Shown: positions 3,001-60,135 of the stretch, one piece after another | Layout of the letters: each line of letters starts with the position of its first letter | Position numbering within the stretch: the stretch's first letter is position 1 | Origin: Fomes fomentarius | Lineage: Eukaryota > Basidiomycota > Agaricomycetes > Polyporales > Polyporaceae | NCBI GenBank assembly: GCA_022606135.1 | Contig: JABYQN010000011.1 | Coordinates: forward strand, 1,240,001 to 1,304,000 | DNA length: 64,000 nt | Reading direction: 5' to 3' | Position numbers and translations under genes: made by a program | The notes under the pieces: generated by a model | What the model was told of the DNA's origin: nothing | What the model saw: only the letters and a program-made list of their open reading frames with translations | The model's database searches: none

Positions 3001-6000
3001 ACTTCAGGAAACACACGGAGCAAGGATCCGTAACATGCCGAACTATTCGGTGGCCCCCAAGAACCCGGATTCGTCCTTCGGCTCATTCAGTGACTTCTCG
3101 GTGATGTCATGAAGCGGCAACAGACTAGTACTGAACTCACCGGCGCTCGGCACGAAGCCGTCTTCTTCCTTGTCATCATGCTTGGCCCTATGAACACAAA
3201 GATGAACAGAGGTATGCATCGTTTCGTGCGGTGCTACAGCCTTCCACGATGGGGCGCAGTCAGTGCTCGAGAACAGTTCTTCCGGAGTGCTACTGGATGA
3301 ACAAGGATCTGAGAAGTATGGCGCAACCGGCGATATGTGTGGAACTGTCCTGCACCAAACAACTGTAGCGTTAGGGGGGGGTGAGCATATTGATATTGAT
3401 TTGCGCTACATTGCGTGGCCACTCACAGACCACATTGCTATGCGGCATAGCAATATCTCTAATTGGCAGTGGGTGGCGAGTCAGTATCACGCAAACCCGC
3501 CGCCGCCACTGTACGATTGGTCTTGGGCCACGATGAGCCCATTCTGACATTACGACGGGGAGGGGGGTCAGCTGGCTTGATCGGGCCGAGCACCTGCGAC
3601 GAGCGTACGTGGCAACACGACGAGCCGCGCCTCAGTGAACTTAGGGCGAATGTTTCACTGGAATGGAGCACCCGTAATTTGACGACCGTACCGGTCAGCA
3701 TTGTATCATGAAGGGTACATAAGTAAGCAAACGAAGCCGGCGGTGCGTGTGGGCGTTGGCGCGGAATGGTGTTTCCGCCGCGACTCGAAGAACCAAGCAT
3801 CGGAGGAACGAGTCCGAACGACTCACATGAGGCGCTTGAAGTGACCAGAAGTAGACGCCATCCCTCCATTGCACCCAGCAGCAGCGCGGCGAATACCAAG
3901 GGTCGGATCGCTGTGTCAATCCCGCTATGTCAAGCGTTGATAAGGTTTGAACTTGAATAGCAACTTACCCAGCTTAACGCCACACAACCGGTTCGTTTGC
4001 CCTGACCTGCGCTGTCACTAGGCCCATCGTGACAGCCGGTGGAGGAGAACCATCCAGCACGGAACTCATGCGAGACGATCGGAGGACACCGATGGAGAAC
4101 AAAGTGGCGGAATCGCCTCGAGATTGGGAAGGAGACGCCCCAGTGTCCGACATCGCGTGGCCGGAGCGTTCAACATTGTTAGACACTGTATGGCGTGGGG
4201 CGACGAGCGTCGCGCCTGCCAGCATGACACGAAACACTTTGCGAGTGGGGAATGATCGAGTTTGTCTGACAGACATTGCAAAGTAAGATTCAAGTGGCTG
4301 TACGAGACAGAACGAAGCCGCCTCGACTCGCACCTGCACAGATTGTTCAATCTTCTGATCTACACTGCGCATTCGCCGACCGCAGCCTGAACCCAAGTCT
4401 TGAGCGTGAGAGACTAGGGCCACGAACACTCTACGCTCTGACGTCAGCTCATCTCAGGCGTTCCACCGCGCGGAACGATCGCTGGGCCACTGGCTCAAAT
4501 CAAACGCAGCACCGCGTAGGACAAGTTAGACGTTTGTAACGTCTTCAAGACACAGCTTCTCCCGGGCCGGCAGGCCCGCCCGCCCAAGTCCGTTTTTGAC
4601 CGAGGTGATCGCAGGAGATGCCTCGAGGGAGGATTGGTGCACGTTACGCATCTGCCTCCGGAGATTGTTGGTCAGGCCCCCGCCGGACAGACACAGCATG
4701 AAGAGAGATTTTGAGACAGGTACCTCGCACGCCCACGCGAGCCCCGATGCAGTCCAGCATCATTTTTTTTTGGCGAGATCGACTCCTGGCAGTGGTGGTG
4801 CGCCCCGACCGCTGCCGTGTGACCTAGATGATACCGCGGGTACCATAGTCGACACAATACGATACACCCGCGCCCATGGCATGTCCGAATTCCCGAAGGC
4901 CGTCCGAGTCGCCGCATAGAAACGGTCTCCGCTGGCATCATAAGGCCTAGGACGAGTCAGGTCAGCGCGCGCATTCCAGTCAGTGGGTCAGAATACTTGG
5001 GTCGACCCGGTGAAACAGGTTCCGAGCTGAACACACGCCAGATTGCAAGGTGAAGTGGGTCGGGTAGCTGTACTTATCCACCATGTCTCCGATATACCAG
5101 TGGTGCCGTGGCAACTAGCACTGTCCAGGCACAAAGTGCACTCGGTTTGCTGGTCGAGGTGATGGCGCAGGTGGGAGTTGGCAGTGCCACGTACCTAGCC
5201 GAGTGAGAGCCTCCGATAGAATGCGGAGGCGCATCAGGCGAGCGACGGCTTGACGCGCATTGTCGGGGCGGGTGGAGGGCGCAAGAGAGGCCTCGAGGCG
5301 GATATGTGCGACCGGCGTCTCCCACCTGGCACCCACGACGCCCACATTTAATTTTGAAGGACAAGTCACGACGAGGTCAATTCGTAGTGGATGACACTGC
5401 GGAAGAAGATACGTATGACTCGTGCTGGTAAGGCGAAGACTGCGATGACTCGGAATATCTGCCAGATCTAGCCGTATAGCTGTCTGTGTCTGAAGGGAGA
5501 ACGTGGCAAACGGAGATTCAGGGATTTCATGGCGCCTGTTGCCAGGTAGTGCATAGGCGCCCTCGAGGCCCGTACTTGCCGCGATCTGCACTCTGTGCGT
5601 GCTGGGGAATGGAAACCGTCGAGGTAAGATTCAGTAGCCATTACCTGGAGCATGGTGCGTCGTGGCCCCGGCGTTACAACTCTCGAAGGAATGACCTGCA
5701 AAGGCCGTGAGGTACCAGAGCTCTGGCTCTCGCCGGCCTCGGTCGGCGGTTCTGTAGGAAGTCCTTGCTCTTTCCGTCCTATCGATCAGCCCATCCGGCG
5801 TTGAGCGGTGCGGCCTGGGAAGCCATCGGGAGCGTTGCAGGACCCCGTACGCTGCCTGTTCGCCGCTCAACCTTCCCGCGTCTTTCCTCAACTTGCCACG
5901 CGTTCGGGTGATACAGCATCTCACCATCTCCAGAGTGGAACCTCACCGCCTTCTCTCCAATTTCGTCCGCCATCGGCATCCCGCCCACGTATTTGCTTGG
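1..6000. other. Gene-poor stretch at the left edge
   Basis: I see no convincing gene here. The open frames on both strands are short, overlap one another and show no recognisable domain, signal peptide or credible exon chain. The only coding-like patches are the two described separately at about 714-1570. The final part, from about 5950, is the promoter side of the adenylating-enzyme gene. The rest may be heavily decayed sequence or true intergenic DNA. Confidence 0.5.
714..1570 (+). other. Possible decayed coding remnant
   Basis: Two patches read like real protein on the plus strand. One at about 800-885 encodes an acidic, helical stretch (DEAKGVLAQEIDEYRRMLEN). Another at about 1489-1570 encodes a charged stretch containing KEKEAEKKREYW and TVKDVDDMTAEP. 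No open frame joins them and I cannot define splice sites that do so. I do not recognise the family. They may be exons of a dead gene or chance low-complexity frames in GC-rich DNA. Confidence 0.2.
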
Positions 6001-10893: not shown

Positions 10894-11068
10894 CAGACGC
10901 CCATGTTGCTCGATAAGCGCTTTTACCTGTCTTTCCACCCTCGCTCAGGCCTCAGGCCTCATCATCCACTCCGTTCTCCTCAATATAAACAGAAAATCCA
11001 TAGTAGTTATACACAGAGACAAGAGGTCTATTGACATCTTTGTCTCAGGCTACCAAGCTGCAAAATGA
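10894..11068 (+). pseudogene. Truncated SGYLL-family copy with its promoter element
   Basis: A perfect CAGACGCCCATGTT element at 10894-10907 is followed by a pyrimidine-rich leader. At about 11024-11068 comes a frame reading RSIDIFVSGYQAAK and then a stop. IDIFVSGY is the exact N-terminal motif of the family, but the rest of the protein is missing. This is a 5' fragment left by truncation or partial duplication. It independently supports the link between the promoter element and this gene family. Confidence 0.6.
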
Positions 11069-13989: not shown

Positions 13990-15732
13990 TTAGCGAATAG
14001 GGCTATCCTCATAGAATTTGGCTGCCTTCCATTTAAGCCTAGTGATCTCCCGTAGTTTGTTGTGGATGTGCGGGCTGTTCCATGGGTACCATCTCTCTGC
14101 ATCTCCATTAGCCGTATACGGCCGCAAATTATGAATAGTCGACCCCGGGCCCGTCCTGTCCCGCTCAGCCAGCAGGAACTCGAGGCCCCCTTCTGGCTCC
14201 TTGGCAACGCGACAGCCCATGAACCAGATGTCCATGGGATCCAGGAAGAGAGCAAAGTATCGTGAGAGCTGATGCAGCGGGTTATCGTGGAGCTTGTCTT
14301 CGACAATGAGGAGACCATCGTAGGTATCCTGTCTGAGAACCATGAAGTCCGGAATGCCGTGCGGGGCGTGGCCGTGACCCCTTGCGGGGACATCGCGCGC
14401 GAATGAGTCAACCGAGACTGAGTTCAAGCTTTCCTTGTCCGAAGGAAATCCTGAAACTTGCGGCGTGGAGGGATTAGCAGAGTCCATCGTCTGGTTGAAG
14501 TCCGGAGGAGAGAGCATAGACTCTTGAGTGACCATCGACGGAAGTGTCAGATCTCGGACACCTGATTGTGCAGCGGAAGGCGTGGATGGTCCGGCATAAC
14601 GAAGGGCATGCGATGCATGGTTGCCTCTATGTTGATGAGGAGAGCGACGCCGTTCAGCCTGAGACGAAGAGGGTGCATCGGCGCCGAAGGATTGGGAGGG
14701 TGATGAATAGTCCAAGGGGTCTTCGGGATCGATAATGGGACCTGAGAACACATCGACAAAATACTTCGGTAGGTCCAATCGCTCTCCGTCAGGTACCGGA
14801 TTGAAGGCAATGTTGAAGTAGGATGGAGAAGAGTCGTCTTGTCGTGAGGTTGATGCATCTCTTGACGCGCGGGGTGTCGAATGGGCCTCTGGATGAAAGT
14901 CTATATCGAATTCCTGCATCAATATGTCCTGCAATGTTTCCTCACACTCCACCCATGAACTCTTTTCACTAGGATCATCGCCAGGACCATCTGCAGGACG
15001 TATTGCCGTAAGCCACTGGTCCCTGCGGCGTGCAAGAAGGGAATATTCCTCTCGTGGCTTTGCGACTACTTCATTCCGGACCCTGTAGTGTGGGGCGACC
15101 TTGAAACATCCCTCCTCGGGAAAGATCACATGCAACAAGGGACCAACACAAGCATCTACGGTCGACTCATACCGTGGAGCATGGATGTCCCGCATGTCGT
15201 CTAATAACCGGGAATTTGCCGTTCGCGAATGTTGGTGACCTAGTTGTTCAAGTGGAACATGTACGAGGTGGTCATTGAAGGGTAATTAGCCAAAGAAGCT
15301 TTCCGTACCTTATTCAAGCGTTCTATGACGCTCTTGATTGCATGCTTTAAGTCATGACGGTACGTGCAGCCTCGGACTGATCATGCGTTAGTTTATATGT
15401 ATTGGTATAACCATGCTCGTGTGGACTCACGAATCCAATACCTAGACATGGTTGGGTCGTGGTGGACCACAGTGAGCAGAAGCAGTTAGGACGCAGCAGA
15501 GCAGACTTACAATAGTGCATTCCCTCAGTTTTGCTACCAACTTCGAGAGCTCATCTTCCACATTTTTCAATGGCGCCTCAGTGTCTCTGGTTGTGTGGTT
15601 TAGCGTGTTTACAGCGAGTTATGGAACAGAGGCTCACATGGTCTGGATTTTGTCTCCTGGCTTTGCCCGTTTTCTTAACTGATCAGGCAGCTCCTGATTT
15701 TCAGCGCTCAGCTTTCTTTTGGATCGTCGCAT
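13990..15732 (-). pseudogene. PD-(D/E)XK nuclease-like protein, copy 1, 5' end frameshifted
   Basis: This is homologous along its length to the intact gene at 49024-50780. Exons read on the minus strand are 15732-15638, 15586-15511, 15441-15431, 15376-15309 and 15239-13990. Exon 4 is 68 bases instead of 76 and shifts the frame. The start of exon 5 has a 4-base loss and a TAG where the intact copy has TGG. From M at 15195 an uninterrupted 401-aa frame remains. It carries the nuclease signature GIPDF (D283), IVEDK (E299, K301) and QLSRY (Q309, Y313). The middle is Ser/Pro-rich and probably disordered. A shortened protein starting at 15195 could still be made, so loss of function is likely rather than certain. 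It is divergent from the SGYLL gene at 16023, with 290 bases between. Confidence 0.65.
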
Positions 15733-15810
15733 CGCGATGCTGAGAGTGATGGAGGAGGTCGAGGTTTGAAGATGGTTAAAAGCCTAGTTAGTGATATCTA
15801 AAGCGGACAG

Positions 15811-16022: not shown

Positions 16023-17463
16023 ATGGCCCACGCCACCAAACCAGGCTCTCGCATGTTATCCATCGACATCGTGGTCTCTGGCTATCTTCTCGATAAAGAT
16101 ATGCTCAAGCACCTCTGTATCCTCAAATATGGCGCCACCCAAGCACAGGTGGACGACTTCGGGCCTGTCGATTTTGCCACTCTCTACTATTCCCAGCGCA
16201 ACTTCCTCGACGCGCCATGGCTCGTCCCCATTCCGTGTCGATCCAAAACCGACCCAAATGTCATGGAAACTAGGTGGCTGATTCCTGGCAAAGCCGCCTT
16301 CATCCGCCCGGGAACGTCGCCTCCCAAGCTTGAGTACGATACTGAGACTAAGGCGTATCTGGACACTTGGTTTCCCCGGGACCTCTTGAAGAGGCCCGAG
16401 TTCAAAGGCATTCGCTTCATTCAGACGTATTGGCCACAAGATATCCAGCGTATGTCTCATTGCTTTCAGTCAGGGCGTGTCCACTGACTTCTCGCTAATC
16501 ATATATACAGCTGTCGGTATCATTCTTGGTAACATGAAGATGGCCACGAAGAAGGGAGCTCGTGCTGCACACCTGCAATACCAACAGAAATGGGTTGACT
16601 TGTCCAGGGCAAATGGAAAGCCGTATACGAAACTTGTATGTCTCCCTCTCGGCTTAACTTTATGCTGTTGCTCATGATTTCGACTACACGCCCAAACGAA
16701 TATAGTATCTGGGACTTATTGAGGTCGACCGTTAATTTCCCGATGCAGGTCCGATCACCTTCCCATACCGCGGCATGTCATCTACAGATACCGTGAAAAA
16801 AGCATATGTCACGCATTAGCGGCGTAAGGTCACTGTAAGTAATGTCACATATCACCCACATCTATTCTCATGTAATGTGCAGGTATGGTATGGGCGCCTG
16901 ATGACACCGAGAATCTCAAGTGGTGCCTTCAATGGGTACACCTTTGCTGCTGCATCTTCTAGCAGTCTGTTGTTGGAGATCAATTTGCTGTAGTATATTA
17001 GCATATATGTACATACTTAGAGCCAGAATCAACCAGAGCTTCCTCGTCTAGTGCACTTGTTCTGGTGGGGGAGAACAGAAAAATTCGTTCAAGTCCAGCA
17101 GAGGTGGTGATATATGCTATACAATCTTTATGTACAAGAAGCCAAAGTGGTGTAGTGGTAAGAGGTGATGGGATAGTAAGCCACAAGCTAATGACGTGGG
17201 TTCGAGTCCCAGTGGTGTGGTCCATTTTGTAATCCTCCTCTGTGCTCAGGCTTGCCTTTTGCGGCAATCAAGCGCCCGCATCCGTACCTTCAGATATCGG
17301 GCCATTATATATATATTTGTCCCCCCAATGCTCGGGTCGACGGATAATTGGGGCTTACAACCCGGCTACCTCCCCAATGCTCTTCGTCTCAGTTATACAC
17401 AACTTATAGAACTCGTTTGGGCGTGTACAGCCAGCACCATTCCCTGTTTCATGGCATCTATGA
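16023..17463 (+). CDS. SGYLL-family small protein, copy 2, with a transposon in intron 2
   Basis: Exons 16023-16449, 16511-16635 and 17431-17463 encode 194 aa: MAHATKPGSR at the start, VSGYLLDKDMLKHLCILKYGATQA, the WLIPGKAAFIRP block, and PAPFPVSWHL at the end. Exon lengths 427, 125 and 33 match the family exactly. Intron 2, 53-60 bases in most other copies, is 795 bases here because a 739-base element with terminal inverted repeats sits just upstream of the 3' splice site. The open frame is undamaged, but splicing of the last exon may be altered. Function is unknown. It is head-to-head with the nuclease-like gene at 15732. Confidence 0.7.
16687..17425. mobile_element. Non-autonomous TIR element (MITE-like) with TA target duplication
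   Basis: The element begins CACGCCCAAACGA (16687-16699) and ends with its exact reverse complement TCGTTTGGGCGTG (17413-17425). TA flanks both ends (16685-16686 and 17426-17427). Removing it together with one TA restores the CGACTACAGCC seen at the same place in intron 2 of copy 1, so this is a clean insertion. No transposase frame is present in the 739 bases. A 2-base TA duplication is usual for Tc1/mariner-like elements. The interior contains a tRNA-like segment. Confidence 0.75.
17141..17222 (+). other. tRNA-like segment (SINE head or tRNA pseudogene) inside the TIR element
   Basis: A box A-like stretch (TGTAGTGGTAAGAGG, 17151-17165) is followed about 30 bases later by an excellent box B (GGGTTCGAGTCCC, 17198-17210). 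The T-arm pairs over four bases. An acceptor stem is only partly formed and I cannot assign an anticodon loop with confidence. It is better explained as a decayed tRNA or the pol III head of a SINE than as a working tRNA gene. Confidence 0.45.
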
Positions 17464-42048: not shown

Positions 42049-42289
42049 TCAGGCATCGTCTGTGACTGTCACCTCCAATTCATACCCAGCAACGCGGGGA
42101 TTGCTGTAGGTACAATAATCTTTTTCATCTGTGGTCAACGACTGACGTGGTTCGTTTGCTGGCGACTTTAGATTCCCGTACATTCGCTATCTCATCTGAA
42201 TGGACCACTGCATAGACTTCACACCGCATACATTAATTCCTGTACGAGTAGATCCAGCACGCACATTACACACATTCAACGGCGTGTCG

Positions 42290-42450
42290 ATGTTTCTTGT
42301 CGGGTGGTTTAGTCAAAGTCCGTGTTGACGGTGGGTTAGAGAACAGAGGCTCACATGGTCTGAGGTTTTTGCCCGCTGCTTTAGTTGTTGGGCTATTTCT
42401 GATGTTGCGATACACGGGATTGCTTTCTAGTTGCTGTATTGCCGTGTAGA
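42290..42450 (-). pseudogene. Relic of a nuclease-like gene (exon 1/intron 1), divergent from copy 6
   Basis: On the minus strand, the splice region CAGACCATGTGAGCCTCTGT and the following GCCGTCAACACGGACTTTGAC-like intron sequence match intron 1 of the nuclease-like gene at 49024-50780 almost base for base. The upstream part (GCAGCGGGCAAAAA) is a degraded exon 1. Nothing downstream of this remains. It sits head-to-head with the SGYLL gene at 42674, the same arrangement as the two recognisable nuclease-like genes. Confidence 0.6.
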
Positions 42451-42673: not shown

Positions 42674-43366
42674 ATGGCCAACCAACCACCTTCTTGCAGG
42701 ACTGCTATCAACATCTTTGTCTCTGGCTATCTTCTCGATGAAGAGATGCTGAAGCACCTCTGTCTCCTCAAGTACGGCGCGACTGAAGCAGAAGTCGACG
42801 ACCTCGGACCTGTGGATTTTGCCTCTCTCTACTACGCTGAGCGCAACTTTCTCGACGCGCCATGGCTTGTACCCATCTCGTATCGCTCCAAGACCAACCC
42901 AAAAGTCATAGAATCAGGGTGGCTGATCCCCGGCAAAGCCGCGTTCTTCCGTCCTGGAGCGGAGCCTCCCCAGCTTCCGTACGACGCCGAGACCAGGGCG
43001 TACCTAGACACTTGGTTTCCGCGGGACCTGTTCAAGAGGCCCGAGTTCAAAGGTGTTCGCTTTGTTGAGACGCATTGGCCGCGAGATATTCCGCGTATGT
43101 CCCGTATGGCTCTAGTCGGGGCGTGCTCGCTGACCCTCCCTCATCATGTACACAGCTGTCGGTATCGTGCTTGGTAACCTTAAGATGGCTGCGAACAAGG
43201 AAGCTCGTGCCGGACATATGCGACGCCAGCAGAGATGGGTCGACTATCGGAGGTCACATGGGCAGCCGGATACGAAACTTGTATGTCCTGGTCCCAGCTT
43301 CACTTGATGCCGTTGCTCATGCTTTGACGACAGCCTGCACCATTCCCTGTTTCATGGCATCTATGA
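42674..43366 (+). CDS. SGYLL-family small protein, copy 6
   Basis: Exons 42674-43094, 43156-43280 and 43334-43366 encode 192 aa. The start MANQPPSCRTAINIFVSGYL differs from the MxxATK type of its neighbours; then come LLDEEMLKHLCLLKYGATEA, ESGWLIPGKAAFFRPG, RPEFKGVRFVETHWPRDI, GIVLGNLKMAANKEARAGHM and PAPFPVSWHL. All phases fit. Function is unknown. It belongs to a different subgroup from copies 4, 5, 7 and 8, and stands next to the decayed nuclease-like fragment. Confidence 0.75.
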
Positions 43367-44138: not shown

Positions 44139-44848
44139 ATGGTCGACGCCACCAAATCAGCCTCTCGCGCGGTACCTATCGACATCTGTGTCTCTGGATA
44201 CCTTCTCGATGAAGAGATGCTCAGGCACCTCTGTATCCTCAAGTACGGCGCCACGGAAGCAGAGGTGGACGATCTCGGGCCCGTCGACTGCGCCACTTTC
44301 TACTACACTGAGCGCTGCTTCCTCGACGCGCCATGGCTCGTCCCCATTCCGTGTCGCTCCAAAAAGGACCCAAATGTGATGGTCACAAGGTGGCTGATTC
44401 CTGGCAAAGCCGCCTTCATTCGTCCGAAATCGCAGCCTCCCAAGCTAGAGTACGATGCGGAGACGAAGGCGTATCTGGACACTTGGTTCCCCCGGAGTCT
44501 CTTGAAGAGGCCCGAGTTCAAAGGCATTCGCTTCATTCAGACTTATTGGCCACGAGATATCCGCCGTATGTACCACTGCCTTTAGTCAGGGCGTGCTGCC
44601 GTGCCCGTTGACCTCTCGCTGATCACGTACACAGCTGTCGGTATCGTTTATGCGAACCTGGTGATGGCCACGAAGAAGGGGGCTCGTGCTGCACACCTGC
44701 GGCAGCAGCAGGAATGGGTTGACAAGGGGAGGTCACTTGGGAAGGTGGATATAAAACTTGTATGTCTTTGTCCCAGCTTGTTTTCTTTTGCCGTTGCTCA
44801 TGCTTTGGACGACAGCCTGCACCATTCCCTGTGTCATGGCATCTATGA
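44139..44848 (+). CDS. SGYLL-family small protein, copy 7
   Basis: Exons 44139-44565, 44635-44759 and 44816-44848 encode 194 aa: MVDATKSASRAVPIDICVSG, YLLDEEMLRHLCILKYGATE, VTRWLIPGKAAFIRPKSQPP, TYWPRDIR, GIVYANLVMATKKGARAAHL, PAPFPVSWHL. The coding part is nearly identical to the inverted copy at 48768-48062; exon 2, intron 2 and much of exon 1 match base for base as far as I can compare by eye. Intact; function unknown. Confidence 0.75.
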
Positions 44849-44989
44849 TCTGTCATCGCCCGTGACTATCACTTATACTCCATACCCAGTAACGCGGTAT
44901 TGCTGTAGGTAAGATGACAACTTGCTTCATCTCCGGTCGATGACTGACACACTGTTCGTTTGTTGGCGATTTCAGATTCCTGCATATTT

Positions 44990-45363: not shown

Positions 45364-45910
45364 ATGTTCAATATAACCACAACAACAGCCTATTGCGTGA
45401 TAGTCATCGACATCTTTGTCTCTGGCTATCTCCTCGTTCAAGAGATGCTCCCAAAGCACGTCTGCCTCCTCAAGTACGGGGCCATTGAAGCGAAGGTGGA
45501 CGACCTCGGCCTCGTCGATTGTGCCACTCTCTGCTACGCCGTGCGCAGGCCTCTTGACGCGCCATGGCCTGTCCCCGTTCTGTCTCGATCCATAAACGAC
45601 CCAGATGTAACAGAAACAAGGTGGCTGATTACTGGCAAAGCCGTGTTCTTCCGTCCGAAGATGTTACCTTACAAGCTTGAGTACGATGCCGAGACCAGGA
45701 CATTTCTAAACACTTGGTTTTCCCCGGATATCCTAAAGAGGCCCGAGTCCAAAGGTGTTCGCTTTATTCAGACGCATTCGCCGCGAGATATCCCGCGTAT
45801 GTCCCATTACCTTGAGTCATGGCGTGCCCACTGACCCTCCCTCATCATGTAAATAGCCGTGGGTATCGTCCGTGATAACCTGCAGATGGCTGGGAAGAGC
45901 TTGTCAATGT
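45364..45910 (+). pseudogene. SGYLL-family copy truncated in exon 2
   Basis: Exon 1 (45364-45796, 433 bases) is open: VIDIFVSGYLL, then VCLLKYGAIEAKVDDLGLVD, ETRWLITGKAVFFRP, HSPRDIP. Intron 1 and its phase are preserved, and exon 2 begins VGIVRDNLQMAGK. Homology then stops abruptly at about 45900 and unrelated sequence follows, without the basic helix or the PAPFPVSWHL exon. Several family-invariant residues are changed (YWPRD to HSPRD, IPGKAAF to ITGKAVF), consistent with relaxed selection. Confidence 0.65.
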
Positions 45911-46082
45911 GGTTAGTGCTCTTTTTCGCTCTCGGTGAATTGGGATTGTTCTTACAACAGTTTCTTGCCCACTATCCCAGTACTATATAGATATCTCTCC
46001 CGGGTAGTCCTGGCAGGCGCTCTCGCTCGCCCACTCAGGGTTCAAAGCTTAGCCCTCTCCAATCGCTTTCCGGCGTTAAATG

Positions 46083-46647
46083 AGCTACCAGAGACCCGCT
46101 CCGCGTTTTGCCTACCGATATACGACGGCGTATATTGAACTACGGTGAGTCATTACGGGACTTATTATGGACGGGCGACGTCCCTTATTCAGCCTCTGTG
46201 CACAGTCTGGTTCCAGCACTACCGGAAAGGGAACTTCCGCGACGAAGGTCTGCCCTTAAGCAAGTGGACGAAGTGCGAGTCCAAACAGACATGGGTGAGT
46301 CGTAAATCATCACGGTCGACATGCATTCATACTGAGACGGCCGTCCGCAGCGAACCACCTATCTCCAAACCATTCCCAAACGCTCTCCACCCCATTTCCC
46401 TTATTCCGGCTACATCACTTCTCCTTGTTCCGGCCATCAAACTCTCCAAGAGATCAGGGAGGAGAAGTGGCGCGAGGAAGCCGACACATCGAAGCCGACG
46501 AAGGTCGAGATGCGTGAGATGTACAAGGAACTAGGCGGGCGGAAGGCTAGGAGAAAGGGCAAACTCGGAGGTACCTCGGGGATGAGAGACCGGGGTGGAT
46601 GCAGGGTTGAAAGAATTGGAATTGTGGGCGATCCAGCGTACATCTGA
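46083..46647 (+). other. Possible gene fragment after the truncated copy
   Basis: A three-part frame can be spliced: a segment ending DIRRRILNY (up to 46144), WFQHYRKGNFRDEGLPLSKW plus TKCESKQTW (46205-46293), and from 46351 a long open exon with QEIREEKWREEADTSKPTKV, EMREMYKELGGRKARRKGK and a stop at 46647. The junctions use GTGAGT..CACAG and GTGAGT..CCGCAG and keep phase. No start codon is available in the first segment and I do not recognise the family. It may be the 3' part of a gene whose 5' end was lost in the recombination that truncated the SGYLL copy. Confidence 0.3.
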
Positions 46648-47800
46648 GCCCTATTCAATACACCTTGAGCGATTCCTCCACTATTACATTGTAGAATTGG
46701 AACCCCTGCAGACATCGTTACCACTCCGGTGCGGTGTGCGGAGGGGCATGCGGAGGGGTATGCGGACAGTGATTCCATGACGAGACAAGAATAGGGGGCG
46801 GGCAGCGTGCGAGTACGGTATACCGAAAGTCTGGGGTCTGATTGTAACGAGAGGATGTGCATGCAAGACACATGCTATGCGGAAGAGAGTAGTCTGCGGG
46901 CAGGGTGATCTGGAGAAAATGGGGTACTGTGAAGGACATGCATGCGCTGGGCTAAGACGGTGATACGGATACAGGTAGGAGTACGGGGACAACGGGGGAC
47001 GCGAGCGTGATCATGAGGCGAAGTCGACCGAGCGAGTGAGAGGATCTGACGGCTCGCACCAGAGGTAATGCACAGAAACGACAATGACAACGTGCACACA
47101 ACGTCCAGACCAGCCCAAACGAATGAACATCCTGCCTGCCCCGACGCGCAGCTCGACCCAACTTGTAAACATGTGTTGCGATGCGGTGTCCTGTGCGGGT
47201 ACCCATGCATGTGCGCCGTGCGGTACGTGCCCAGACCTGAGCTCGACACGCACGCACGCGCCCTCGACTTCTCCGTGTCCGACTCATTCTGTGACAATCC
47301 TGCATCTCCTTCCCCTACACCCAATTCCTAGTGCAATGGCTCAGCCACTCCGCCTTGCGACCACTGGGTCGGTGGCGCAATTGGTACCCTAGAGCCTGTC
47401 CATACGCCACTTGTGGACCTGGTGACATACGGCCAGCCTGAGGCCATGGCGATACACCGCCAGAGTAGAGTGACGCGGTCCAGGACTTACGTGTGCGGTA
47501 GTCGGCACCAAGAGCCTGTTGAGGTGTTCATTGTGCGTGTACGCTGCTTGAGGATGGCCAGGGTGACCGTGTGCGGTTGATCTGAGTCATGGCGTATGCT
47601 TCGCCAGCGGGGGGGTACAGCTTGCGCGTACGGGTCGTGGTCGTAGTACATCTGGTTGGGGTCATTGCGAAACTGCATGTTCGGGTGTAGGTGAGGCAGT
47701 ACCGCGTAAGGATCATTAACAGCTCAGTAGTGGACCCCGCTGAAGGGGCAACACTGCCCGCATGGGTGTCCGGTCGTGTAAGGTTGACTTGGGAAGATGT
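46648..47800. other. Intergenic, no supported gene
   Basis: Several overlapping frames on both strands are rich in Cys/His/Thr but follow simple-sequence composition. A tRNA-like box A at about 47370 has no partner (see rejected items). From about 47810 the 3' flank of the minus-strand SGYLL gene begins, including the RNDVWDMCVLDLLVQ patch on the plus strand. Confidence 0.35.
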
Positions 47801-48061
47801 CTCGAAACCTGCTCCACTTTTGCAGAGAAATGATGTGTGGGATATGTGCGTGCTAGATCTACTCGTACAGGAAGTAATGTATGCGGTGTGAAGTCTACGC
47901 AATGGTCCATTCAGATGAGATAGCGAATGTACGGGAATCTAAAGTCGCCAGCAAACGAACCACGTCAGTCGTTGACCACAGATGAAAAAGATTATTGTAC
48001 CTACAGCGATCCCCGCATTGCTGGGTATGAATCGGAGGTGACAGTCACAGGCGATGCCAGA

Positions 48062-48768
48062 TCATAGATGCCATGACACAGGGAATGGTGCAGGCTGTCG
48101 TCCAAAGCATGAGCAACGGCAAAAGAAAACAAGCTGGGACAAAGACATACAAGTTTTATATCCACCTTCCCAAGTGACCTCCCCTTGTCAACCCATTCCT
48201 GCTGCTGCCGCAGGTGTGCAGCACGAGCCCCCTTCTTCGTGGCCATCACCAGGTTCGCATAAACGATACCGACAGCTGTGTACGTGATCAGCGAGAGGTC
48301 AACGGGCACGGCAGCACGCCCTGACTAAAGGCAGTGGTACATACGGCGGATATCTCGTGGCCAATAAGTCTGAATGAAGCGAATGCCTTTGAACTCGGGC
48401 CTCTTCAAGAGACTCCGGGGGAACCAAGTGTCCAGATACGCCTTCGTCTCCGCATCGTACTCTAGCTTGGGAGGCTGCGATTTCGGACGAATGAAGGCGG
48501 CTTTGCCAGGAATCAGCCACCTTGTGACCATCACATTTGGGTCCTTTTTGGAGCGACACGGAATGGGGACGAGCCATGGCGCGTCGAGGAAGCAGCGCTC
48601 AGTGTAGTAGAAAGTGGCGCAGTCGACGGGCCCGAGATCGTCCACCTCTGCTTCCGTGGCGCCGTACTTGAGGATACAGAGGTGCCTGAGCATCTCTTCA
48701 TCGAGAAGGTATCCAGAGACAGAGATGTCGATAGGTACGCGAGGGGCTGATTTGGTGGCGTCGACCAT
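48062..48768 (-). CDS. SGYLL-family small protein, copy 8
   Basis: Minus-strand exons 48768-48345, 48275-48151 and 48094-48062 encode 193 aa: MVDATKSAPRVPIDISVSGY, LLDEEMLRHLCILKYGATEA, VTRWLIPGKAAFIRP, TYWPRDIR, GIVYANLVMATKKGARAAHL and PAPFPVSWHL. From the RHLCILKYG block to the end it is practically identical to copy 7, whereas the N-terminal APRVPIDI resembles copy 5 and so does its 3' flank. It is therefore a mosaic. It is head-to-head with the intact nuclease-like gene at 49024, 255 bases away, making this the best-preserved example of the two-gene unit. Confidence 0.75.
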
Positions 48769-48913
48769 GATGTACGGTGTTTCGGGGAGGTGGATGAGAG
48801 TCAAGGAGGTGGAAATCGAGAAGGTGAGAATCGAAGAGGTGGGAGTCGAGGAGGTGGGAGTCAAGGGGATGGGAGTGAGTGGATGAAGCACAAGACGGTA
48901 ACCGAACAACTTG

Positions 48914-48954
48914 AACATGGGCGTCTGTGGCTGGCGGAGCTCCAAAATAGGCGC
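48914..48954 (-). promoter_or_regulatory. Bipartite element in the intact divergent promoter
   Basis: On the minus strand GCGCCTA (48954-48948) and CAGACGCCCATGTT (48927-48914) lie between the SGYLL start (48768) and the nuclease-like start (49024). It is the only copy of the element in the 255-base intergenic region, so both genes may depend on it. Confidence 0.6.
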
Positions 48955-49023
48955 TCGGCTTACACTCGGGCCGAAAAGTCATAACCATTCTTGATCCTCG
49001 ACCTTTTCCCAATCATTCTCCGA

Positions 49024-50780
49024 ATGGCGATGCGGCGATCCAAGAGAAAACAGAACGCTGAATATCAGGAACTGCCTGCTCAGTCAAAGAAACGGGCAAA
49101 GCCAGGAGAAAAAATTCAGACCATGTGAGCCTCTGTTTAATCCTCGCCGTCAACACGGACTTTGACACCCAACCAGAGACACTGAGGCGTCGTTGAAAAG
49201 TGTGAAAGATGAGCTCTCGAAGTTGGTAGAAAAACTCACAGAATGTACCGTCGTGAGTCTGCTCTGCTGCGTACTAGCTGCATACGCTTACCACGACCTA
49301 ACCACGACCTAACCATGTCCAGATATTGGACGAGTAAGCCTGTCTGCACGAACATGGTTAGACATATACATTTTAGCTGACGCGTAACCAGTTCCAAGCT
49401 GCACATCCGTAAAGACTTGTACCATGCAGTTGATAGCGTTAGGGTTCGCTTGGATCAGATGCTCAAGGTACGGAAAGTTTCGTTCGCTGGCTACCCTTCA
49501 ATAACCAGTCACTCTTGTACATGTTCTACTACAACAACCAGGCAACCGATGATCGAGAACGTAGGATTCCTGAATGGTTATGGGATGACATGCGCGATAT
49601 CCATGCTCCACGGTACGAGTCGACTGTAGATGCTTGTGTCGGACCCATGTTGCATGTGATCTTTCCCGAGGAGGGCTCCTTCAAGGTCGCCCCACACCAC
49701 AAGGTCCGGAACGAAGTAGCTTCAAAGCCACGAGAGGGGCAGTCCCTCATTGCACGCCGCACGGAGGAGTGGGCTGCGGGAACGCGTCCTGAAGATGGAT
49801 CTGGCGATGATCCTCCCGATGATCCTCCCGGCAGGCGTTCATGGGTGGAGTCTGAGGAAGCGTTGCGGGACAGATTGATGCAGCAAAATGATACAGACTT
49901 TACAGACTTCAATCCACAGGCCCAATCAACACCCCGCGTGTTAGTAGATGCAGCAACCTCGCGGGAAAACGACTCTCCTTCATCCAAGTTCTTGGACTTC
50001 ACATTCCTTCCGGAACATATCGAGGAGCAAATAGAGTCGCCGATCGATTTGGCTTCCATCGGAGAGCCGTCGACCACCTTCGGCACCAATGCACCCCCTT
50101 CGTCTCAGGCTGAACAGTGTCGCTCTCCCCATAATCATGGGGGCAAGAACGTATTGTATGCCTCTGGTGATGCTGGACCATCCACGCCTCCTACTGTTGC
50201 GCAAGCAGACGAAAAGTGGCTGGAACCTCCCTCGGAGTTAGAGGTCGCTCAACTCTCGCCTATGCTCTCTTCTGCCGATTTCAACCGGGCCATGGACTCT
50301 CTCAATCCTATCACGCCACAAGTTTCAGGATTCCCTTCGGAAAGGGAAGACTCGAACGCAGTCTCATTTGATACGTTCTTGCGAAAAGTCCCCGCAAGGG
50401 GTCATGGCCACGCCCCGCACGGCATACCGGACTTCATGGTTCTGAGACAGGACACCTACGATGTTCTCCTCATCGTCGAGGACAAGATCCACGGTAACCC
50501 GATGCATCAGCTCTCACGATACTCTACTTTCTTCCCGGAATCCCTGGATATCTGGTTCATGGGCTGTCGTGTCGCCAAGGAGCCAGAAGGGGGCCTCGAG
50601 TTCATCCTGGCAGAGCGGAGCAGGAAGGTCGCGGGGTCTCTGCAAGTTTATACGGCTGAGGGAAATCCCAAGAAGAAATGGTACCCGTGGGACAGCGCAC
50701 ACATCCACAACAAACTACGGGAGATCGCTAGGCTTAACTGGAAGGCAGCCGATCTCCGTGACAGGGACCTGACTGACTAA
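49024..50780 (+). CDS. PD-(D/E)XK nuclease-like protein, intact copy
   Basis: Exons 49024-49124, 49177-49252, 49323-49333 (11 bases), 49392-49467 and 49542-50780 encode 500 aa. The N-terminus is strongly basic (MAMRRSKRK, KKRAKPGEK; possible nuclear signal), then a helical, coiled-coil-like stretch to about residue 88. A conserved block DMRDIHAPRYESTVDACVGP with HVIFPEEGSFKVAPH follows, then a Ser/Pro/Asp-rich disordered middle (about 180-360). The C-terminal domain carries GIPDF (P384, D385), LLIVEDK (E401, K403) and QLSRY (Q411, Y415). This is the PD-(D/E)XK signature with a RecB-type QxxxY, as in many metal-dependent DNA nucleases and in some fungal proteins of this fold. All proposed catalytic residues are present. 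Activity and target are unknown. No DNA-binding or kinase domain was recognised. Confidence 0.7.
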
Positions 50781-58468: not shown

Positions 58469-60135
58469 ATGTCGTTCACGACTCGCTTCGCCGTTCTCGC
58501 CCTTGCACTCATCACCGCCGTTCAGGGTGGTCCTCTCGTCAACATCAAGAGCACGACCGCAGAGAAGGTTCCCAATGGCTACATCGTCTCGCTCAAGCCC
58601 GGAGCGCGTCTGAACGCGCACCGCGACATCCTCCGCAACTTCGCCCGTGGGGACTCGGACGTCAAGTACGAGTGGCCAAACCTGAACGCGATTGCGGGCA
58701 AATTCAGCGACGAGGCGCTCCAGGCTTTTCGCGAGTCGGACGACGTCGCGGCCATCGAGCACGATACGATCGGCGGGGTCGACGCGATTGTCACCCAGAC
58801 GGGCGCGATTTGGAACCTGCAGCGCATCTCCCAGGTCCCGAAGCTCACAAGCAACGACACCAACGCGCGCAACTACAACTACACGTACGACGATAGCGCA
58901 GGAGAAGGAGTCGACATCTACGTCATTGATAGCGGTGCGTCACACGACCTTCATGTCGCGACGGGTTTATATGCTAAGTCGTGCGCTCAGGCATCCAGCT
59001 CAATCACACTGAGTTCGGTGGGCGCGCGTCGTGGGGCAAGGTTCACGTTCTGACGCTTGTATCAGCTTCTGGTAACTGATCAATGGTTTCCAGACCTTCG
59101 GTGGATACGGTGATAACGAGGACGGCCTCGGGCATGGCACGCATGTCTGTATGTTACGTTTTCAGTCGTCATAGGATCACTGCTCAATCCTCCCCCTCAC
59201 AGCTGGTACCGCCGCTGGCGCGACATTTGGTGTTGCGAAAAAGGCAAACCTCACGGCTGTGCGTGTTCTTGACGATAATGGTGCAGGCGGTAAGTTCCAC
59301 GAGCTTTCATGCTGCTCACGCGATCCTAAACTCTGCTCCTTACTAGTGGTCTCCGACACGTAAGGTGACCTTCGACCGGCAGCCCCGGGCCCAAACTGAC
59401 GTACCGTCTATAGCATTGCTGCCGTAGACTGGGTTACTGAGCAGGCCACCACTGTTACTCATCGACCCAGCATCGGTACTATCTCCCTCCACTTCAGTCC
59501 CAGTGACGTGTTGGATGCTGCAGTCACCAACGTACGTATCTATCGCTATGTCTAGAAATTGCACAATGCTCATGCTCGCTGGAACGGCATAGGCTATCAA
59601 CGCTGGCGTGCACATCACCGCGTCCGCAGGCAACGCCGCGTCGCTCTCGTCGACGCAGAGTCCTGCGCGTGCGGAGGCGATCATCACTGTCGGCGCCGCC
59701 AACATCCTTGACGCGAAGTCGACTTACAGCAATTACGGCCCTGGCGTCGATATCTTTGCTCCCGGGGACAACATCCTCTCTTCTTACATTGGCAGCAGCA
59801 ACAACGCAACCGAGGTACTCTCCGGTACATCCATGTCTACCCCTCACGTTGTGCGTCTCCTTTCTCTTCTGAGGCTTGTCATTGCAAGAGTGGTGCTCAA
59901 GATGCGCGTAGGCTGGCTTGGTAGCATACCTGATTGGGCTCGAAGGCAACAAGCCCCCTCGTGAAGTTCTTGCCCGCCTCAAGGAATTCAGTCCCGACGG
60001 TATTTTGACTGGAGTTCGTGAGTAGTCATTTCTCTCTTGCTTCGCCTTTCATCCGTGAGTTGAGTCAGTTGACTCACTGGCTGTCTAGCTTCCGACACGA
60101 TCAACGAGCTTGCCAACAACGGCGCGAACCTTTGA
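58469..60135 (+). CDS. Secreted proteinase K-like subtilisin (peptidase S8)
   Basis: Nine exons (58469-58934, 58991-59040, 59094-59148, 59203-59289, 59347-59359, 59414-59531, 59593-59850, 59912-60017, 60089-60135) join in phase to 399 aa. A 20-residue signal peptide (MSFTTRFAVLALALITAVQG) is followed by an inhibitor-I9 propeptide (PNGYIVSLKPGARLNAHRDI) ending near GAIWNLQRIS. The S8 domain has catalytic D154 (YVIDSG), H186 (GHGTH), oxyanion-hole N277 (ASAGNA) and S343 (SGTSMSTPHV). It should be an extracellular endopeptidase matured by removal of the propeptide. N-glycosylation sites include NDT, NYT and NAT. A 13-base exon is needed at 59347-59359. Intact, in contrast to the pseudogene at 21888-23243. 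It is divergent from the F-box gene. Confidence 0.9.

What the first reader, a model, noticed from the sequence alone, without database searches (positions are those of the whole stretch)
48062..50780. Two-gene unit: SGYLL gene head-to-head with a PD-(D/E)XK nuclease-like gene
The intact nuclease-like gene (P384-D385, E401-x-K403, Q411xxxY415) starts 255 bases from an intact SGYLL gene in divergent orientation. The same pairing occurs at 14.0-17.5 kb and as a relic at 42.3-43.4 kb. Three independent occurrences argue for a co-inherited unit. Nuclease-like PD-(D/E)XK domains also occur in fungal spore-killer (Spok) proteins, so a two-component conflict or genome-defence role is one hypothesis, but nothing here proves it.
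Basis: partly seen in the sequence, partly recalled or inferred. Interest (0 to 1): 0.85.

Follow-up and report, generated by a model that had tools for sequence, protein, structure and literature searches.

The report
Paired nuclease and partner genes, polypore
In the tinder fungus a predicted DNA-cutting enzyme gene sits head to head with a small partner gene across one short shared promoter, and such pairs occur on several chromosomes, which makes them candidate poison-and-antidote units, although nobody has tested that.

Summary
At 48062-50780 a 193-aa SGYLL gene (-, 3 exons) and a 511-aa nuclease-like gene (+, 5 exons) start 255 bp apart. The window is from Fomes fomentarius. In its 40.9-Mb genome I found 8 nuclease loci; 5 have a head-to-head SGYLL gene (two in this window, one each on contigs C5, C7, C15). 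Nuclease copies on different contigs are saturated at synonymous sites, and the 10-kb loci share only these two genes, so the pairing is old. The link is one-way: most SGYLL copies stand alone, and one unpaired nuclease (C11:1.118 Mb) may be intact. The nuclease is probably a PD-(D/E)XK enzyme whose fold is split by a ~220-residue insert; the structure model is weak. New: a 13-base promoter box (ACATGGGCGTCTG) occurs 12 times in the genome, 11 of them just upstream of SGYLL genes or relics, and lies in the shared promoter of this pair. Neither family passes a Pfam cut-off. Best reading: a two-gene toxin-antidote-like unit (nuclease poison, SGYLL neutraliser). The unit is well supported; the antidote role is inference. 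It is not a Spok: no kinase domain follows the nuclease.

The parts
48062..48768 (-). SGYLL gene, 3 exons (48768-48345, 48275-48151, 48094-48062), 193 aa, pI 9.2
   Evidence: spliced model; same exon structure as the public model of a paralogue (P0009); pI; 23 further matches in the genome
48769..49023 (.). 255-bp shared intergenic region, presumed bidirectional promoter
48915..48927 (+). promoter box 1, ACATGGGCGTCTG
   Evidence: 12 exact copies in 40.9 Mb, reversed control 0; 11 of 12 just upstream of SGYLL genes or relics
48934..48942 (+). GCGGAGCTC followed by an A/T-rich, TATA-like stretch facing the nuclease; also in the 14-kb, C5 and C15 units and, without a nuclease, at C15:55 kb
   Evidence: compared by eye in the sequences
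48948..48956 (+). promoter box 2, TAGGCGCTC
49024..50780 (+). nuclease-like gene, 5 exons, 511 aa: basic N-terminus (NLS-like), helical region, split PD-(D/E)XK domain
   Evidence: spliced model; dN/dS; structure
50427..50432 (+). PD of the PD-(D/E)XK motif (P395-D396)
   Evidence: invariant in alignment A1, 11 rows
50478..50486 (+). ExK of the motif (E412-D413-K414)
   Evidence: E and K invariant in A1
50508..50522 (+). QxxxY (Q422-Y426)
   Evidence: Q invariant, Y nearly invariant in A1
13990..15738 (-). second nuclease copy, 5' exons damaged, 401-aa 3' reading frame open
16023..17460 (+). SGYLL partner of the second copy; its last exon lies beyond a ~0.7-kb insertion
42266..42370 (-). nuclease relic (end of exon 1 to exon 2) divergent from SGYLL at 42674
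   Evidence: blastn 76% over 108 nt, E 3e-14
42674..43363 (+). SGYLL gene beside the relic
   Evidence: P0014

Best explanation
A two-gene, toxin-antidote-like unit of a polypore. A nuclear PD-(D/E)XK nuclease (basic N-terminus, helical region that may dimerise, catalytic domain split by a long disordered insert) can damage DNA; the small basic SGYLL protein made from the same short bidirectional promoter holds it in check. Nuclei or cells that lose the pair would be harmed by leftover nuclease, which keeps the pair together and lets SGYLL persist alone as protection after the nuclease decays. Shown by computation: the unit, its age, the shared promoter module in most units, the nuclease motif. 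Inferred: nuclear location, DNA cleavage, neutralisation by SGYLL, and the selfish benefit.
For: Five of 8 nuclease loci have a divergent SGYLL. Two of the 3 unpaired loci are decayed: C11:1125 kb has the catalytic K replaced by E and a broken frame, C11:1311 kb is an N-terminal fragment with stops. By contrast 19 of 24 SGYLL matches have no stop inside the match, 14 of them outside a divergent pair: the partner often persists alone. Two unpaired SGYLL genes still have a nuclease-region relic in the divergent position (42.3 kb; C8:1664 kb). Copies on C5, C7, C15 and C11 differ at pS 0.66-0.76 yet keep the arrangement and share nothing else in 10 kb. Between contigs nuclease dN/dS is 0.17-0.32 where defined, with dS saturated; for SGYLL pairs with dS under 1.2 it is 0.16-0.54, two pairs with dS 0 left out. 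PD-(D/E)XK evidence. Literature lead: a PD-(D/E)XK domain with QxxxY is needed for killing by SPOK proteins, which act through DNA damage (passages read in PMC6660238 and PMC9972908).
Against: No toxicity, inhibition or expression data. The third unpaired nuclease (C11:1118 kb, public model P0007, 357 aa) keeps the full motif in open frames, and the exon search that succeeds for 4 of 5 paired copies also returns models for it and for the decayed C11:1125 kb copy, so 'unpaired nucleases decay' rests on two loci only. One paired copy (14 kb) is damaged too. Between the two window copies dN/dS is 0.63 overall, also in the C-terminal domain, a weak constraint. SGYLL is far more numerous than the nuclease, which also fits a family with a role of its own. 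SGYLL is basic, whereas many nuclease inhibitors are acidic (recalled). The C7 unit lacks box 1. The pair correlation within the C11-type pairs alone is not significant (29 of 120).
Confidence: 0.36

Rival explanations
1. A host-serving two-component pair: nuclease plus regulatory partner in DNA processing, defence against invading DNA, or recognition of non-self nuclei in the mycelium; the shared promoter gives balanced expression. No killing of non-carriers.
For: Conserved arrangement over saturated synonymous divergence; shared promoter box in several units; SGYLL mostly maintained without the nuclease; one unpaired nuclease perhaps intact.
Against: Copy number and presence vary: 8 nuclease loci, of which the 14-kb, C11:1125-kb and C11:1311-kb ones are damaged; hits from other assemblies include nuclease types 64% (P0003) or under 40% (P0008) identical to the copies here. 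Such turnover fits conflict better than housekeeping, though defence genes also turn over.
Confidence: 0.35
2. A two-gene mobile element (the nuclease acting in its own movement, as TnsA or homing nucleases do), now mostly immobile.
For: Compact pair on four contigs with unrelated flanks; decaying copies and relics.
Against: No inverted repeats of 14 nt or more bracket the unit within 46.5-52 kb (both pairs found there are printed); at C5 and C7 the bracketing pairs printed are weak (18-25 nt, 76-83%) and not close to the gene ends. Genes contain several introns; copy number is low; the 720 bp beyond the nuclease stop are single-copy, although the 561 bp beyond the SGYLL stop have 7 further matches, on C11, C4 and C10.
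Confidence: 0.12
3. Two unrelated genes that share a bidirectional promoter and were copied together; the proteins do not work together.
For: Divergent neighbours with short gaps are common in compact fungal genomes (general knowledge). Within the C11 cluster, linkage could come from tandem duplication. Three of 8 nuclease loci and most SGYLL genes are not in a divergent pair.
Against: Head-to-head order survives saturation on C5, C7, C15 while flanks do not.
Confidence: 0.17

Closest known systems
Spok spore killers (Podospora and other ascomycetes)
   Different: Spok carries its resistance function in the same protein, in a kinase domain; here the protein ends 85 residues after the QxxxY motif and the candidate antidote is a separate gene. 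QxxxY starts 8 residues after the catalytic K here, 54 after it in SPOK3. No sequence homology was tested.
PD-(D/E)XK nucleases: type I/IIG restriction enzymes, Holliday junction resolvases, VRR-NUC
   Different: About 220 mostly low-confidence residues separate the first helix and strand from the PD strand; no family profile is matched above its cut-off.
Neurospora Sk-2 (rfk-1 killer, rsk resistance)
   Same: Fungal killer with killing and resistance in separate genes (recalled; only a search listing and abstract starts seen).
   Different: There the genes lie in a large rearranged, recombination-suppressed block (recalled); here they are 255 bp apart and share an intergenic region.

Membership tests
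PD-(D/E)XK nuclease superfamily | PD-x(n)-(D/E)xK catalytic motif conserved across the family | tested here: met
   P, D, E, K and Q invariant in 11 aligned members; the C11:1125-kb copy, not in that alignment, has K replaced by E and a broken frame
PD-(D/E)XK nuclease superfamily | alpha-beta-beta-beta-alpha-beta core fold | tested here: inconclusive
PD-(D/E)XK nuclease superfamily | match to a family profile | tested here: inconclusive
   VRR_NUC E 0.11 in 1 of 11 members and 0.057-0.2 in 2 of 8 domain pieces, under its cut-off; none in NCBIfam or PADLOC; a Holliday junction resolvase PHROG at E 0.28 in 2 of 11 members and 0.13 in 1 of 8 pieces
PD-(D/E)XK nuclease superfamily | nuclease activity | not testable with these tools
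   needs purified protein
Spok spore killers | nuclease and kinase domains in one protein | tested here: not met
   no Pfam match, kinase included, in the 421-aa last exon that holds the nuclease domain and the C-terminus; 85 residues after QxxxY
Spok spore killers | sequence homology to the Spok nuclease domain | not tested
Two-gene toxin-antitoxin type systems | tight conserved linkage of the two genes | tested here: met
   5 of 8 nuclease loci, divergent; promoter module shared by the 49-kb, 14-kb, C5 and C15 units, not found in C7
Two-gene toxin-antitoxin type systems | toxicity of one product relieved by the other | not testable with these tools
   needs expression tests
Two-gene DNA transposon | terminal inverted repeats around the unit | tested here: inconclusive
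   none around the 49-kb unit (2 of 2 pairs printed); for four other regions only the 5 longest pairs are printed, with weak bracketing pairs at C5 and C7

The most novel reading that the evidence does not exclude
A two-gene killer element of a mushroom-forming basidiomycete: a nuclear, split PD-(D/E)XK nuclease as poison and SGYLL as a separate antidote that also binds the ACATGGGCGTCTG box and regulates its own bidirectional promoter, like a bacterial antitoxin.
Probability: 0.14. Interest if true: 0.88.

Novelty: new variant of a known kind. Interest (0 to 1): 0.6.

Why it matters
If true it would be a molecularly defined toxin-antidote element in mushroom-forming fungi with poison and antidote in separate divergent genes, and it comes with short, testable parts. 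My searches combining spore killers or meiotic drive with basidiomycetes or Basidiomycota (listings and abstract starts only, plus passages of PMC10427833) showed no described basidiomycete killer gene, but they cover only open-licence papers. Even without the conflict role, two protein families that pass no Pfam cut-off, their one-way linkage, and a promoter box that marks part of the SGYLL family genome-wide give a concrete way to find and test the system in other polypores.

Full report
WHAT IS THERE. The window lies in Fomes fomentarius: window proteins match records named for that species, on a contig of the same length as C11. It is positions 1240001-1304000 of contig C11 of a 40.9-Mb genome in 24 contigs. 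The SGYLL gene runs 48768-48062 (-) in three exons, 193 aa; the nuclease-like gene 49024-50780 (+) in five exons, 511 aa. The gap between start codons is 255 bp. The exon layout of SGYLL agrees with the public model of a paralogue (P0009). The exon models rest on open frames and GT-AG sites; no transcript was available.

GENOME-WIDE LINKAGE. A translated search with the nuclease gives 13 matches that I group into 8 loci: two in this window, C5:2.351 Mb, C15:0.129 Mb, C7:0.948 Mb, and C11:1.118, 1.125 and 1.311 Mb (the C7 query gives the same loci). Two short relics found by DNA (below) are not counted. SGYLL gives 24 matches, 19 without a stop inside the match (23 matches with the C7 query). 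Five nuclease loci have a divergent SGYLL: the two in this window, C5, C15 and C7. Of the other three, C11:1.125 Mb has a SGYLL gene downstream in convergent order (by my reading with a frameshift near its start); the other two have none detected in the 10 kb fetched. So 14 of the 19 stop-free SGYLL matches are not in a divergent pair. Outside C11 there are 8 SGYLL loci in 38.6 Mb, so one within 1.5 kb of a given point is expected at about 6 in 10,000; 3 of 3 nuclease loci there have one (my arithmetic). The tool states that its counts are lower bounds.

AGE. Between contigs the nuclease copies differ at pS 0.66-0.76 (dS at least 1.6 or undefined in all 9 comparisons) and pN 0.31-0.43. The two window copies have dN/dS 0.63 over the aligned frame: 0.25 in the N-terminal conserved part, 0.78 in the linker, 0.63 in the C-terminal domain (ratios from its dS and dN); the 14-kb copy is damaged. 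The 10-kb loci on C5, C7 and C15 share with each other and with 11 kb around each window unit only the two genes (E 1e-5). Distances between nuclease proteins and between their SGYLL partners correlate at r 0.94 over 8 pairs, reached by 32 of 40,320 permutations; within the five C11-type pairs the correlation is 0.24 and not significant (29 of 120). Five of the 8 pairs are from this genome; three are from other contigs and rest on the inference of the next paragraph; P0005 was cut to its first 215 residues for that test.

OTHER ASSEMBLIES. Protein searches returned relatives on short contigs of unnamed origin. Nuclease hits and SGYLL hits have the same longest-contig length in three cases: 8261 (P0005, P0012), 3322 (P0020 and P0023, P0010) and 4610 (P0021, P0011). 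I infer one contig in each case; the contigs were not seen. Four other short-contig lengths with a nuclease hit (4554, 2882, 7635, 5709) have no SGYLL hit of that length, so 3 of 7. P0012 is 86.5% identical to the SGYLL at 42.7 kb, the copy whose nuclease is only a relic here, so the nuclease seems lost in one lineage and kept, at least in part, in another. One nuclease hit is named Earliella scabrosa (P0022), so the family is not confined to Fomes; no SGYLL hit bears that name, but the search sees close relatives only. P0008 has no counterpart over 40% identity in the loci compared here, and P0003 is equally far (64%) from both window copies.

SGYLL. No Pfam match at E 0.1 or better, no clear fold, pI 9.2. 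The model, of the paralogue P0009 (mean pLDDT 70), has strand-helix-helix-strand-strand-helix-helix-strand and C-terminal helices. I see no obvious catalytic set and take it for a binding protein.

PROMOTER. The intergenic regions of the 49-kb, 14-kb, C5 and C15 units contain a common module: ACATGGGCGTCTG (one mismatch in C5), GCGGAG plus an A/T-rich stretch, then, except in C15, TAGGCGCTC or similar. The exact 13-mer occurs 12 times in the genome, its reversed control 0 times. Nine of the 12 lie 58-172 bp upstream of a SGYLL start, reading away from SGYLL; one lies upstream of a SGYLL relic at window 11.03 kb and one upstream of a degenerate SGYLL match on C1 (E down to 7e-11); one (C5:2848898) has no SGYLL match in the 8 kb fetched. 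Of 22 SGYLL starts examined, 9 have the exact box, 4 have one mismatch, 1 has two, and 8 have three or more, among them C7, both C10 copies and C8:1664 kb, so it marks part of the family. At one mismatch there are 96 sites against 68 in the control. Box 2 follows at +24 in the unpaired genes at 12.5, 24.5, 41.3 and 44.1 kb (the last with 3 mismatches), at +33 in the 49-kb, 14-kb and ex-paired 42.7-kb units and at +41 in C5, but also at +31 in the unpaired 45.4-kb gene; at 25.9 kb, C15, C15:55 kb, 10.9 kb and C1 it is poor. The GCGGAG stretch is also present at the unpaired C15:55-kb gene and altered at 42.7 kb. So the idea that a nuclease-facing TATA-like stretch marks paired units is only a lead, drawn by eye after seeing the sequences.

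DECAY. Nuclease: the 14-kb copy (paired) is damaged at its 5' end; C11:1.125 Mb (unpaired) has lost the catalytic K and its frame; C11:1.311 Mb (unpaired) is a fragment. C11:1.118 Mb (unpaired) keeps the motif and has a public model, P0007. My exon search gave models for 4 of 5 paired copies and for 2 of 3 unpaired ones, so it does not separate the two groups. SGYLL: 19 of 24 matches are free of stops. Two SGYLL genes keep a nuclease-region relic in the divergent position: 42.3 kb and C8:1664 kb (this one matches the region 5' of the C7 nuclease domain, where the exon model is weak). The partner outlives the nuclease more often than the reverse, but the evidence that unpaired nucleases decay is two loci against one.

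MECHANISM. Shown: an old head-to-head pair with a shared promoter module in most units, and a conserved nuclease motif. Likely: a PD-(D/E)XK nuclease. Inferred: action in the nucleus, DNA cleavage, control by SGYLL, selfish maintenance. SPOK proteins show that such a domain can be a poison in fungi: the catalytic K is needed for killing (PMC6660238, passages) and the effect is DNA damage (PMC9972908, passages). Spok differs in gene layout, motif spacing and the kinase antidote. I rate the toxin-antidote reading at 0.36, a host-serving pair at 0.35, coincidental co-duplication at 0.17 and a mobile element at 0.12. The statement 'a conserved two-gene unit with a PD-(D/E)XK-type enzyme', without the function, I would put at about 0.8.

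NOVELTY. Neither family passes a Pfam cut-off; the hits that bear a name are 'hypothetical protein'. A search of the paper library for the two locus-tag prefixes found nothing. The kind of system, nuclease plus neutralising partner, is known; this layout in a basidiomycete would be a new variant.

Noticed in passing
window 10894-11060: Exact promoter box followed by a short SGYLL relic (IDIFVSGY), not in the protein search of the genome.
   Followed up: yes
L046 (C1:3439000-3447000), 3712-4057: Degenerate SGYLL copy with an exact promoter box upstream, missed by the genome search.
   Followed up: yes
window 16700-17405: About 0.7-kb insertion in the last intron region of the SGYLL gene at 16 kb; ends look like inverted repeats (CACGCCCAAACGA), possibly a MITE (read by eye).
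   Followed up: no
window 44172-44897 and 48013-48738: 726-nt inverted repeat, 98% complementary: a recent duplication of the SGYLL gene and its 3' flank.
   Followed up: partly
L036 and L037 (C11:1.118 and 1.125 Mb): Two nuclease copies 94-98% identical in opposite orientation on either side of a DEAD-box-like gene (named by eye); one has the catalytic K replaced by E, the other keeps it.
   Followed up: partly
window 45900-47900: Sequence shared with stretches near the C10 SGYLL genes and with C4, perhaps a dispersed repeat; the public model P0015 runs from SGYLL into it.
   Followed up: no
window 22250, 58469-59053; L038:2521-3027: Several copies of what looks like a subtilisin-like protease gene start near the cluster (named by eye).
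   Followed up: no
C8:1617807 and C8:1664021 (L041, L042): Two SGYLL genes in duplicated segments of several kb; the second has a relic of the C7-type nuclease region.
   Followed up: partly
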